This document shows positions 2,791 to 29,100 of a stretch of 64,000 bases of DNA, one piece after another. The stretch covers positions 4,735,001 to 4,799,000 of the forward strand of contig NC_072795.1 in the NCBI RefSeq assembly GCF_028583425.1, given 5' to 3'. Below the pieces are notes generated by a model. That model was given only the letters and a program-made list of their open reading frames with translations, was not told the DNA's origin and made no database searches. The position numbers were made by a program, and so were the translations under genes. This DNA comes from Eublepharis macularius. Taxonomy: Eukaryota; Chordata; Lepidosauria; Squamata; Eublepharidae. Each line of letters opens with the position of its first letter. Positions within the stretch are counted from its first letter, which is position 1.

Positions 2791-3644
2791 TATGTGATGT
2801 TTCGGCCCTGATCCTGCCAGCTCCCAGGTTGTAAGCAAGCGGCGCAGTCGTCCTCCTGACCAGCCCACTCCCAATACATACCCGATTGGTTGACCACCGG
2901 TGCAGACCTGAACACGAGCAGCAGCGCCCACGTTTCAATCATTACCGCCAGCTGCAGGCTCTCCATGACAACTTCTCAAAGGCTGGGAAGTTCTCCAAGG
3001 TCCCCCTTCCCTCTCAACCCAACCTCAGAATTCAAAACTGATCAGAGAGGCAAACACTGGCCATGGGGAGAGCCGTGGGCTGGCAGAGGCAGTCACTGTG
3101 CCACCGGCTCTCTGGTAGCTGCTCAAGAGCAGCCAGGCTCGAAATGAAACACTCCCATCTCTACCTGCAAGGGTTCCCCTCCAGGCCTCCCCGCCCACTT
3201 CTTCCTCTGCCTCCAACCAGACCCAGTTTCACACGCTCAGTGCGCTCAAAAGGAAATTGCAGCCTCTTGGCACAAAGAGTTTGAAGCACAAGACCACAAC
3301 GCCAACCAGTTCTAACCCCACACATGGCACATTTGTTTGGGGCAAATTGCTGGGTTCGCTCATCGACCGTGAAGCCACAGCACAGACGGCTCACGTCAGG
3401 AGTCAGGACTCAAGACGTGAGAAGAGACACATTTTCCCTCTGGTTGTTCCTACACAACCAGAAGTCAAACAAGTTCGCTGGCAGAAGTGACGAGGTTGCA
3501 GACTGCAAACAGCGTGGAGAGAATGATTAGGAAGAAATGCTTCTCTCTGTTTTGCAGCGCTGGAATTTCTGGTCTCGGGAGCTGACGGATATCTAACCTA
3601 TACAGATAGTTTCAGTTGGGTAGACGTGTTCGCCTGCAGTAGAA

Positions 3645-11523: not shown

Positions 11524-11644
<121 letters not shown>

Positions 11645-12848: not shown

Positions 12849-13449
12849 ACCCCGGTAGCTTGACATTTTCCTTTCCTCTTGTTTGATGAGTCAGTTGTTT
12901 GGGCTGCAGAACAAAACAAACGGGCCCAAAGGTTCCAGTGTAACCGTTTCCAGTAAGGCCGTGCCTGGGTATGTTTTTGTGTACAAGAAGAGGAAACAAA
13001 AGACTGTTTTTTAAAAAAACAAGTTCCATCCGCTCTGCAAATGTAAGGTTGCCAATAGGGGTGTGCAAGCCAAAAATTTTCGGCTATAGCCGAAAGTAGA
13101 AAGCCGAAAGAAAATTCTCTATCGTTAAAGCTGAAAGCCGAAACAAGAATCTCTTTCGGGATTCGGGATTCGGGATTCTTTCGGCATTATTTCGGCATTC
13201 TTTCGGCTTTTTTCTATGGGAAAATGCCTCCGTCTTCCAGGACGCCTGGAGGAGGCATTTTCCCACCGAATAAGCCCAAAATTGGTGGGGACCTTCCTCT
13301 AACCCTTCTCTAACAACCACCCAAGTTTCAGACAGATTGGACTTTGGGGGGCCATGTTATGGCCCCCCAAAGCAGGTCCCCCCATCCTCCCATAAAGGAG
13401 CATCTTCTTCATTATTTCCTATGGGGAAAAAATGAAGAAGCAGGCTTCC

Positions 13450-13935
13450 TTTGCCAGGGGTGGCATTTTGCATGCAAAATGCCCCCTTACCCTCAGGGGC
13501 CCTTCTCCCACCCCTCCTCCCACCCCCCACCAAGGCTCAGCCTGCTCCCACTTGGGGGGGCCATTTCATGGCCTCCCCAAGTAGGTGCTCTAATCTCTAC
13601 CACTGACAGCTGGGGGAGGCTTGTGTTGCCAGGGGTGGCATTTTGCATGCAAAATGCCCCCCAACCCTCTGGGGCCCTTCTCCCACCCCTCCTCCCACCC
13701 CCCACCAAGGCTCAGCCTGCTCCCACTTGGGGGGGCCATTTCATGGCCTCCCCAAGTAGGTGCTCTAATCTCTACCACTGACAGCTGGGGGAGGCTTGTG
13801 TTGCCAGGGGTGGCATTTTGCATGCAAAATGCCCCCCAGCCCTCTGGGGCCCTTCTCCCACCCTTCCTCCCACCCCACACCAAGGCTCAGACTGCTCCCA
13901 CTTGGGGGGGCCATTTCATGGCCTCCCCAAGTAGG
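13450..13935 (+). repeat. Tandem block in left arm (3 units, about 175 bp)
   Basis: Three units, each with the self-complementary core TTTTGCATGCAAAATG and the phrase GGCCATTTCATGGCC. The mirror block in the right arm (15960-16265) has two units, so the arms differ in copy number. Confidence 0.8.
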
Positions 13936-14429
13936 TCCTCTCAGCCCCTAAAGTCCACCCCTTACAGCCCCACACAAACCCAATTCCCCCCCAGCTGCCG
14001 CACACAGACCCAAATCCCCACATTAGCCCCTCACAGACCCAAATCCACCCCCACCTGCCCCACACCCATAACCCCAGGAACAGGCTGGCAAAGGCCAGCC
14101 CTCTCCCTTTGTTCCCTATGCTGGGAACTTCTAAACTCTCTTTCCCTGGGCAATTCTGCACAGCCCAGGGGTGCCACAATGGTGGGCACACTTCTGAGTG
14201 CCAGCTGGTCCCTGTGAAAGAACACCTGAACCACAGACACCCTCCCTCAAATTCCCCCACCACCTACAGAGATAGCTGGCCAGCCAGCCCCATTGTTCCC
14301 TATGATGGGAACCAACTGCACAACAAAGAATAAAACAAGAACAACACAAAATAAAGTTTTTAAAAAATTATTTTCTCCCTTCCAAAGTACAAGTAGGCAA
14401 AGCATTATGACACATTACACCAGCAGTCC

Positions 14430-15445
14430 CCCACACAGAAAAATAACACAACTCACTTAACATCAGAGAATCACAAAGCACGATTCCTGTCAAAAACACT
14501 TTATTTCTTGAACAGCTTTAGGTTACACAGCAGGGGGGAACACCAAAGGGCTTGGCAGCAGTATCTTACACAAAAATAACACAACTCACTTAACATCAGA
14601 GAATCACAAAAGCACAATTCCTGTCAAAAACACTTTATTTCTTGAACAGCTTTAGGCTACACAGCAGGGGGGGGACACCAAAGGGCATGGAAGCAGTATC
14701 TTACACAAAAATAACACAACTCACTTCACATTAAAGAATCACCCCAAAAAATTGCTGTCAAAAGCACTTTATTTCTGTAACTGCTTTAGGTTACACAGTA
14801 GGAAGGCACCACAGAGCAGGAAAGCAGTGTACTACACAAAAATAACACAACTCACTTCACATCAGAGAATCACACAAACACAATTGCTGTCAAAAACGGT
14901 GAAGTGGGTTGTATTATTTTTTGTAGTACATTGCTATCATGCCCTTTTGTGCCCTCCTACTGTGTAACCTAAAGCTGTTCAAGAAATAAAGTGTTTTTGC
15001 CAGGAATTGTGTTTTTGTGATTCTCTGATGTTAAGTGAGTTGTGTTATTTTTGTGTAAGATACTGCTTCCATGCCCTTTGGTGTTCCCCCCCTGCTGTGT
15101 AGCCTAAAGCTGTTCAAGAAATAAAGTGTTTTTGCCAGGAATTGTGTTTTTGTGATTCTCTGATGTTAAGTGAGTTGTGTTATTTTTGTGTAAGATACTG
15201 CTTCCATGCCCTTTGGTGTTCCCCCCCTGCTGTGTAGCCTAAAGCTGTTCAAGAAATAAAGTGTTTTTGACAGGAATTGTGCTTTTGTGATTCTCTGATG
15301 TTAAGTGAGTTGTGTTATTTTTGTGTAAGATACTGCTGCCATGCCCTTTGGTGTTCCCCCCCTGCTGTGTAGCCTAAAGCTGTTCAAGAAATAAAGTGTT
15401 TTTGACAGGAATCGTGCTTTGTGATTCTCTGATGTTAAGTGAGTT
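14430..15445. repeat. Central inverted arrays of about 133-bp units
   Basis: Left of about 14860 the phrase AAAAATAACACAACTCACTT recurs every ~133 bp; right of about 14897 its reverse complement recurs at about 130-bp spacing. The units also carry an AATAAA hexamer. A spacer of about 36 bp separates the arms. Confidence 0.75.
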
Positions 15446-15959
15446 GTGTTATTTTTCTGTGTGGGGGACTGCTGGTGTTATGTGTCATAATGCTTTGCCT
15501 ACTTGTACTTTGGAAGGGAGAAAATAATTTTTAAAAAACTTTAGTTTGTGTTGTTCTTGTTTTATTCTTTGTTGTGCAGTTGGTTCCCATCATAGGGAAC
15601 AATGGGGCTGGCTGGCCAGCCATCTCTGTAGGTGGTGGGGGAATTTGAGGGAGGGTGTCTGTGGTTCAGGTGCTCTTTCACAGGGACCAGCTGGCACTCA
15701 GAAGTGTGCCCACCATTGTGGCACCCCTGGGCTGTGCAGAATTGCCCAGGGAAAGAGAGTTTAGAAGTTCCCAGCATAGGGAACAAAGGGAGAGGGCTGG
15801 CCTTTGCCAGCCTGTTCCTGGGGTTATGGGTGTGGGGCAGGTGGGGGTGGATTTGGGTCTGTGAGGGGCTAATGTGGGGATTTGGGTCTGTGTGTGGCAG
15901 CTGGGGGGAATTGGGTTTGTGTGGAGCTGTAAGGGGTGGAATTTAGGGGCTGAGAGGAC

Positions 15960-16265
15960 CTACTTGGGGAGGCCATGAAATGGCCCCCCCAAGTGGGAGC
16001 AGGCTGAGCCTTGGTGGGGGGTGGGAGGAGGGGTGGGAGAAGGGCCCCAGAGGGTTGGGGGGCATTTTGCATGCAAAATGCCACCCCTGGCAACACAAGC
16101 CTCCCCCAGCTGTCAGTGGTAGAGATTAGAGCACCTACTTGGGGAGGCCATGAAATGGCCCCCCCAAGTGGGAGCAGGCTGAGCCTTGGTGGGGGGTGGG
16201 AGGAGGGGTGGGAGAAGGGCCCCTGAGGGTAAGGGGGCATTTTGCATGCAAAATGCCACCCCTGG
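15960..16265 (-). repeat. Tandem block in right arm (2 units)
   Basis: Mirror copy of the left-arm block with one unit fewer; same core words on the opposite strand. Confidence 0.8.
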
Positions 16266-16674
16266 CAAAGGAAGCCTGCTTCTTCATTTTTTCCCCATAG
16301 GAAATAATGAAGAAGATGCTCCTTTATGGGAGGATGGGGGGACCTGCTTTGGGGGGCCATAACATGGCCCCCCAAAGTCCAATCTGTCTGAAACTTGGGT
16401 GGTTGTTAGAGAAGGGTTAGAGGAAGGTCCCCACCAATTTTGGGCTTATTCGGTGGGAAGATGCCTCCCCCAGACGTCCGGGAAGACGGAGGCATTTTCC
16501 CATTGAAAAGCCGAATGAAAGACGAAAGAATCCCGAAACGTTTCGGCTTTTTTCTTTCGGCTACCCGAAACGTTTCGGGATTCCCCGAAACGTTTCGGCA
16601 TTCCCTGAAAGAAGCCGAAACACTTTTGTTTCGGCATTCTTTCGGCATTCTGAATGCCGAAACGCACATCCCTA

Positions 16675-16886
16675 GTTGCCAATTTACAGGTGGTGGCTGG
16701 AGATCTCCTGGAATTACAACTGATCTCCAGATGACAGGGGTTCATTCCCCTGGAGAAAATGGCTGCTTTGGAGGGTGGACGCTCTGCCATTATACCCTGC
16801 GGAGGTGTCTCCTCTCCTGAGCCCAACCTTCACCAGGCTCCACCCTCAAAATCTCCAGGAATTTCACAAGCTGGAGCTGGCAACCT
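16675..16886. mobile_element. TAGGGTTGCCAG-family MITE (target of the giant element)
   Basis: GTTGCCAATTTACAGGTGGTGG ... GGAGCTGGCAACCT. Its first bases (GGTTGCCAA at 13047-13055) were separated by the giant palindromic insertion. Confidence 0.75.
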
Positions 16887-28857: not shown

Positions 28858-29100
28858 CATTAAATCAAAGCAAGAAATGTCTCAAATTCAATGTATTAAT
28901 CAATTAATCAAAGGAAGAAATGCCTTAAATCAAACGTATTAATTAATCTAAGCAAGAAATGCCTTAAATTAAATGTATTAATTGATCAAAGCAAGAAATG
29001 CCTTAAATGAAATATAGTAATTAATTAATCAAACCAAGAAATGCCTTGTTAATTAATCAAAGCAAGACATGCCTTAAATTAATGCTTTTAATTAATTTAT
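28858..29100 (+). repeat. AT-rich minisatellite upstream of DYNLT2B
   Basis: About six units of 40-48 bp built on CAAGAAATGCCTTAAAT and GTATTAATTAATCAAAG, imperfect, ending some 300 bp before the CpG island. Confidence 0.85.

What the first reader, a model, noticed from the sequence alone, without database searches (positions are those of the whole stretch)
13056..16674. 3.6-kb nearly perfect palindrome that is itself a hAT-like transposon
Seen directly: inverted termini (TAGGGGTGTGC / GCACATCCCTA), identical 8-bp flanks GTTGCCAA, and two arms of about 1.8 kb that mirror each other, with a spacer of only about 36 bp. Several hundred bases between 13250 and 13500 match 16210-16450 almost without change. 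Known: hAT elements make 8-bp duplications, and short palindromic MITEs exist. A foldback this long, carrying tandem arrays in its arms and no transposase, is unusual. It suggests an inverted dimer of a smaller element that was mobilised as one unit.
Basis: partly seen in the sequence, partly recalled or inferred. Interest (0 to 1): 0.85.

Follow-up and report, generated by a model that had tools for sequence, protein, structure and literature searches.

The report
Giant palindromic hAT transposon family
A 3.6-kb mirror-image stretch of reptile DNA is one of thousands of copies of a jumping element whose two halves are inverted copies of the tail of a larger transposase-bearing element, and at two sites one half seems to have been rewritten from the other with neighbouring host DNA copied in.

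Summary
Window 13056-16674 is a TSD-flanked, hAT-type non-autonomous element with a huge internal palindrome. Its end markers occur 2,263-3,459 times in this genome. On contig C1 up to 101.6 Mb, 64 of 78 exact left ends have the exact right end 2.6-4.2 kb away. Of 40 best-matching copies (window included), 39 show perfect, all-different 8-bp duplications (nTnnnnAn).

"Inverted dimer of a smaller element" is not supported. The outer 153 and 168 bp differ from each other; the palindrome lies between them. Its arm matches the 3' noncoding tail of larger BED-hAT elements, where the stretches read show it on one side of the transposase only. Of 50 scored relatives of that transposase, 47 have no stop; two carry the palindrome's exact 32-bp right end. 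A partner with both ends was not found.

The palindrome is dynamic. Seven of 55 complete C1 copies with a recognisable centre have the core flipped. At two loci arm-on-arm copying seems to have overrun the element end and brought 204 bp and 3,098 bp of host flank inside an element still bounded by perfect duplications. Closest analogues: Galileo/Foldback elements of Drosophila. New variant of a known kind.

The parts
13048..13055 (.). 8-bp target-site duplication GTTGCCAA (left)
   Evidence: most other scored copies of the host repeat at this site run on without the element (34 of 39)
13056..13208 (+). unique left end (3'-side terminus of the hAT), tip TAGGGGTGTGCA plus CCGAAA/TTTCGG subterminal motifs
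   Evidence: not mirrored on the right; not shared by the larger relative L070, whose similarity starts at element position 146-154
13209..14897 (+). left palindrome arm, matching the 3' noncoding tail of larger hAT relatives
   Evidence: 97.3% to right arm; element 154-1611 colinear at 81-86% in the end of a larger element
13442..13966 (+). 175-bp tandem array, 3 units
14435..14897 (+). ~135-bp tandem array of the left arm; AATAAA followed by GT-rich sequence three times on the minus strand
   Evidence: a diverged relative of the unit lies 3' of the transposase gene
14898..14992 (.). centre of the palindrome, inside the 135-bp unit; asymmetric marker 14880-14911 used to score core orientation
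14902..15460 (+). ~135-bp tandem array of the right arm; AATAAA followed by GT-rich sequence at about 14985, 15120, 15255, 15390 on the plus strand
14993..16506 (-). right palindrome arm, inverted copy of the 3' tail
15953..16268 (-). 175-bp tandem array, about 2 units
16507..16674 (+). unique right end (5'-side terminus of the hAT) with CCCGAAACGTTTCGG repeats
   Evidence: 88% to the right end at a transposase locus; exact 32-mer near two stop-free transposase ORFs
16675..16682 (.). 8-bp target-site duplication GTTGCCAA (right)

Best explanation
An abundant non-autonomous hAT element, with a very young subset of copies. SHOWN: insertions with 8-bp nTnnnnAn duplications; distinct left and right ends; right end shared with stop-free BED-hAT transposase loci; arm equal to the 3' noncoding tail of larger relatives; arms mostly present as inverted pairs. 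INFERRED: it arose when a break or excision gap inside an autonomous copy was repaired by copying the 3' tail a second time in inverted orientation, replacing the transposase and 5' region and leaving 168 bp of the right end. A transposase of this hAT group moves it in trans. The two arms go on templating repair of each other, which changes tandem-unit number, inverts the core and, when copying runs outward past the end, pulls flanking host DNA inside the element.
For: Counts and pairing. TSDs. Near-identity of 39 compared copies with length steps of 135 and 175 bp. 3'-tail origin. A 2.3-kb relative with one arm marker and 5'-side sequence at its right end. Transposase relatives: 47 of 50 scored without a stop; exact 32-bp right end about 5 kb from two of them. 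Core flips 7 of 55. Two overrun loci with host flank inside perfect TSDs. Right-arm variants equal to the left-arm base: 7 of 55 distinct, about 0.5 expected (my arithmetic).
Against: No autonomous element with BOTH palindrome ends was found: the two transposase copies with the exact right end have no exact 16-mer left end nearby, and L070, which shares the arm, has a different left end. No autonomous element was read from end to end; at the C1:2.75 Mb locus pieces of the tail occur twice in direct orientation on the 3' side and its left end was not reached. In a 500-bp single-copy stretch the two arms of one element are, outside the two overrun loci, about as different as arms of different elements, so general arm homogenisation is not shown. 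Flips partly follow a subfamily (7 of 9 left ends with a centre but no exact right end are flipped), so the number of flip events is unknown. The 7 conversion-like variants could be retained ancestral bases, and 3 of them lie in the 135-bp array, where unit exchange could mimic conversion.
Confidence: 0.8

Rival explanations
1. Inverted dimer of a smaller element that was mobilised as one unit.
For: Two long arms face each other; a locus with two facing right ends exists (L048), although it proved to be an overrun inside one element.
Against: Left and right ends differ; the 64 pairs of exact ends on C1 are all 2.57-4.16 kb, none the size of one arm; the arm matches one side of larger transposase-type elements.
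Confidence: 0.07
2. An autonomous Galileo/Foldback-like hAT has ~1.7-kb inverted arms around its transposase, and the window copy only lost the middle.
For: No transposase copy with both palindrome ends was read in full.
Against: At C1:2748900-2757986 the modules of the arm are found only on the 3' side of the transposase; the right end joins other 5' DNA. The 2.3-kb relative also joins 5'-side DNA to its right end.
Confidence: 0.1
3. Assembly artefact (false inverted repeat).
For: Palindromes are assembly-prone; raw reads were not available; the 3,098-bp host copy at L048 is 100% identical to its source.
Against: Different TSDs at 39 sites, distinct ends, dispersed copies genome-wide, host-repeat copies without the element.
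Confidence: 0.03

Closest known systems
Galileo (P superfamily, Drosophila mojavensis PMC3573991 and D. willistoni PMC4168063; passages seen)
   Same: Long inverted repeats with internal tandem repeats (one D. willistoni copy: 4.2-4.7 kb, ~140-bp units); the longest inverted repeats in D. mojavensis are in non-autonomous copies; neighbouring sequence recruited into the inverted repeat; the authors propose break repair using the other repeat as template, giving TIR1-F1-F1-TIR2.
   Different: P superfamily, not hAT; inverted repeats are terminal; the recruitment described in the passages seen is of internal element sequence. Here the arms lie inside unlike ends and copying appears to have run outward into host DNA.
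Tetris (foldback, Drosophila virilis; PMC4079207, passages seen)
   Same: Non-autonomous foldback-like element with ~220-bp tandem units of varying number in its inverted repeats.
   Different: Three structurally complete copies reported; transposase source not found; here thousands of copies and transposase-bearing relatives.
hAT internal-deletion MITEs such as Mar (PMC3517528, passages seen)
   Same: 8-bp TSD, short TIR, no coding capacity, derived by internal deletion from a larger hAT.
   Different: Mar fragments are a few hundred bp and its TSD consensus is nnnTAnnn (Buster); this one is 3.6 kb, palindromic, with nTnnnnAn.

Membership tests
hAT superfamily (Ac-type target preference) | 8-bp target-site duplication | tested here: met
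   39 of 40 best-matching copies incl. the window; all 39 different; the 40th (L016) had no right end in the fetched stretch
hAT superfamily (Ac-type target preference) | nTnnnnAn duplication motif (recalled; the Buster contrast nnnTAnnn was seen in PMC3517528) | tested here: met
   T at 2 in 32 of 39, A at 7 in 34 of 39, at least one of them in 39 of 39
hAT superfamily (Ac-type target preference) | ends shared with elements encoding a hAT transposase | tested here: inconclusive
   918-aa ORF: Dimer_Tnp_hAT E 9.7e-16, zf-BED E 9.3e-9; right end 88% at the same locus, exact 32-mer about 5 kb from two further copies: met for the right end. Left end not found with any transposase copy
hAT superfamily (Ac-type target preference) | mobilised by that transposase | not testable with these tools
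   needs an excision assay
Foldback-type element | long inverted repeats reaching the termini, with tandem units inside | tested here: not met
   tandem units present, but inverted arms begin 153 and 168 bp inside unlike ends; it may work like a foldback but is not filed as one
MITE | short (recalled: below roughly 0.8 kb), internally deleted, no ORF | tested here: not met
   3,619 bp; the 64 paired C1 elements are 2.57-4.16 kb
Galileo / P superfamily | P-type transposase | tested here: not met
   the related transposase has BED and hAT dimerisation domains

The most novel reading that the evidence does not exclude
The palindrome is a self-templating capture device. A break in one arm is repaired from the other arm, copying runs through the element end into host DNA, and rejoining leaves that host DNA inside intact hAT ends and duplications. 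Later transposition would then spread the captured host DNA, giving a general route by which DNA transposons acquire inverted host segments and long arms.
Probability: 0.35. Interest if true: 0.75.

Novelty: new variant of a known kind. Interest (0 to 1): 0.58.

Why it matters
Multi-kilobase palindromes with a short spacer are expected to be unstable (recalled), yet here thousands of dispersed copies sit in one vertebrate genome, dozens of them nearly identical, each a replicate experiment on how palindromes are repaired. The variant classes (core flips, unit changes, arm overruns into host DNA) can be counted directly. The two host captures give a concrete, testable path for how transposons pick up host sequence.

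Tried and rejected
Inverted dimer: rejected on unlike ends and 3'-tail origin. Concerted evolution of the two arms: tested on 500 bp of single-copy arm in 10 fetched loci plus the window; no general effect. Flip phylogeny from 430 bp at the left end in 12 copies: too weakly supported to count events, and in that script I labelled L057 as flipped although one search shows its core in the window's orientation. Coding content: three ORF translations from the element gave no Pfam match; no tRNA and no Rfam match at the gathering score in the window. Autonomous element with both ends: not found; the 16-mer left end is absent near the two transposase copies on C1 that carry the exact right end. Species name: suspected leopard gecko from assembly size, recall only; the assembly paper is not held. 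The 39 compared copies are best hits to the left half, so their identity is selected and is no measure of family age. Loci L048-L057 were picked for odd structure, not at random; L056 had a right end but no left end in the stretch. In one search eight TSDs were typed in from earlier output, at least one (L051) not turned to element orientation; the figures quoted are, which uses none of them. In one search the script printed 'False' for L050 and L051 because I had placed their mutated right ends wrongly; the printed flanks show GTGATATG and ATCTTTTG on both sides. L054 has 7 of 8 bases of its TSD alike. An earlier count gave 46 of 50 stop-free transposases; the recount is 47.

Full report
WHAT IS THERE. 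Window 13056-16674 (3,619 bp) is bounded by GTTGCCAA on both sides and by tips TAGGGGTGTGC / GCACATCCCTA. Between an outer left 153 bp and an outer right 168 bp lie two inverted arms of 1,689 and 1,609 bp; 1,466 of 1,506 aligned positions agree, the longest exact run is 457 bp, and the left arm has one extra 175-bp unit. The outer ends are not mirror images beyond the tip and CCGAAA-type motifs. Each arm contains a 175-bp array and a 135-bp array; the 135-bp arrays carry AATAAA followed by GT-rich sequence, four times on the plus strand in the right arm and three times on the minus strand in the left. None of three ORF translations tested has a Pfam match.

IT IS A REAL MOBILE FAMILY. Whole-genome pattern counts, each with a reversed-pattern control of 0: left-end 29-mer with up to 3 mismatches 3,459; right-end 32-mer exact 2,263; centre 32-mer exact 2,443; arm 32-mer exact 5,404; left-end 16-mer exact 2,299. 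On contig C1 up to 101.6 Mb, 64 of 78 exact left ends have an exact right end in the same orientation, 2.57-4.16 kb away (with a slightly longer list, gives 66 of 80). Of 33 such elements below 56.4 Mb, 28 have both arm markers in convergent order and 5 have one exact marker. The left half of the window element finds 40 full-length places (its own included) at nominal 100% over 1,795 bp, a lower bound because only 40 of 1,486 candidates were scored. I fetched the other 39. With the window, 39 of 40 have perfect 8-bp duplications, all different; T at position 2 in 32, A at 7 in 34, one or the other in all 39. The 40th, L016, is a palindrome with a second palindrome inserted in it; no right end lies in the fetched stretch. 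The 39 aligned copies (window included, L016 left out) are 36 distinct sequences, 0-12 substitutions from the majority, with length steps of 135 and 175 bp. The window insertion lies at the edge of an older interspersed repeat: a query of the two flanks joined with one TSD matches 39 other scored places, and 34 of these run 2-16 bp past the TSD into the left flank without the element.

WHERE THE ARM COMES FROM. The genome holds many hAT transposase genes (150 PF05699 matches scored of 4,145 candidates). At C1:2748900-2757986 a 918-aa ORF with a BED finger and a hAT dimerisation domain lies on the minus strand. On its 5' side is a right end 88% identical to that of the palindrome (element 3452-3619); on its 3' side are element positions 880-1073 and 1220-1417 at 84% and 73% and a diverged 135-bp unit. 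The same 3' arrangement is in four other loci with long open frames (918-921 aa), 96-99% alike. Further out on the 3' side at C1:2.75 Mb, pieces of the tail occur again in direct orientation, and the left end of that element was not reached. At C1:1415600-1417840, element positions 154-1611 run colinear at 81-86% behind a different left end; this is one tip of a pair of opposite tips 9.1 kb apart that enclose a PF05699 match, of which I read 2.2 kb. A 2,310-bp relative (C1:12475844-12478153, two opposite tips) has one exact arm marker and, in the 771 bp that I could read, 5'-side sequence (78% to the C1:2.75 Mb locus) and a right-type end instead of a second arm. So the arm is the 3' noncoding tail of larger elements, and the palindrome is that tail twice, inverted, in place of transposase and 5' region. 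Of 50 scored relatives of the transposase, 47 have no stop and 3 have one (16,414 first-look candidates). Five of the 50 are on C1; four lie within the reach of the right-end list. Two of these four, C1:52444452 and C1:59081227, have the exact 32-bp right end about 5 kb from the ORF start in the right orientation; C1:2751861 has the 88% end; C1:94613178 has no exact one listed. The exact left 16-mer is not near the first two, so a partner with both ends remains to be found.

WHAT THE PALINDROME DOES. Core orientation: of 64 complete C1 elements, 48 have the centre in the window's orientation, 7 inverted, 9 no exact centre marker; of 14 left ends without an exact right end, 9 have a centre and 7 of these are inverted. 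Inverted-core copies L052 and L053 have perfect TSDs; L050 and L051, also inverted, have matching flanks once their mutated right ends are placed correctly (printed). All 38 fetched close copies with both ends have the window orientation. Overruns: L049 (C1:86379819-86383521) has left and right ends and TSD ATAGTAAT, but after the right arm it has an inverted left end followed by 204 bp of the left host flank in reverse complement (one mismatch), then the right end; the join shares AAA with both sides. L048 with its surroundings (C1:85649325-85657043) has TSD CAAATGAC and, inside, an inverted right end followed by 3,098 bp of the right host flank without a mismatch, joined to the 175-bp array of the left arm. 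Both are what copying from one arm onto the other, continued past the element end and then rejoined, would leave. Conversion-like changes: 7 of 55 distinct right-arm substitutions among close copies equal the left-arm base; with 40 differing sites in 1,506 and one of three bases, about 0.5 is expected (my arithmetic). Against general homogenisation: in a 500-bp single-copy stretch, differences between the arms of one element are 10 (window), 0 (L048), 1 (L049), 2 (L050), 6 (L052), 6 (L055), 3 (L057), against a mean of 5.7 over 163 comparisons between elements (the two L016 segments compared there belong to two nested elements).

COMPARISON. Mechanistically it resembles Galileo, for which recruitment of neighbouring sequence into the inverted repeats by break repair from the other repeat was proposed (PMC3573991, PMC4168063, passages), and Tetris (PMC4079207, passages). 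It is hAT by TSD, tip and transposase-bearing relatives at the right end. It is not a MITE by length, and not a Foldback in the strict sense because the arms do not reach the tips. My ten paper searches showed, in the titles and abstract starts listed, no palindromic hAT of this size in a squamate; most subscription papers and Repbase are outside that library, so a described consensus may exist.

CERTAINTY. Element, family and TSD: high. 3'-tail origin of the arm: high, though no autonomous element was read whole. Birth by inverted copying in repair: likely, by analogy with the two overrun loci. Trans-mobilisation by a protein of the 918-921-aa group: likely, untested. Whether the overruns are real rather than assembly faults needs raw reads; whether captured DNA later spreads is open.

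Noticed in passing
G000 contig C1:4635000, 4994832, 5262466, 5477572, 6561039 (each to about +4.0-4.1 kb): Five pairs of TAGGGGTGTGCA in opposite orientation about 4.0-4.1 kb apart: apparently another uniform hAT family with the same tip at both ends.
   Followed up: no
G000 contig C1:2.26-2.93 Mb: Dense cluster of TAGGGGTGTGCA sites, perhaps a tandem segmental duplication carrying hAT ends.
   Followed up: no
L016 (G000:C13:15781875-15786693): A palindromic element inserted inside the right arm of another palindromic element.
   Followed up: partly
L064 and beyond, G000:C1:2759653-2761786: Half a palindrome, cut at its centre in a TACAATA-type simple repeat, next to the transposase locus.
   Followed up: partly
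window 11524-11644 and 28863-29075: Perfect (TACATA)20 array, and a 39-bp/28-bp AATCAAAGCAAGAAATGCC-type tandem array.
   Followed up: no
window 16683-16763: The right flank is an older interspersed repeat with at least 39 other scored copies at 84-92%.
   Followed up: partly
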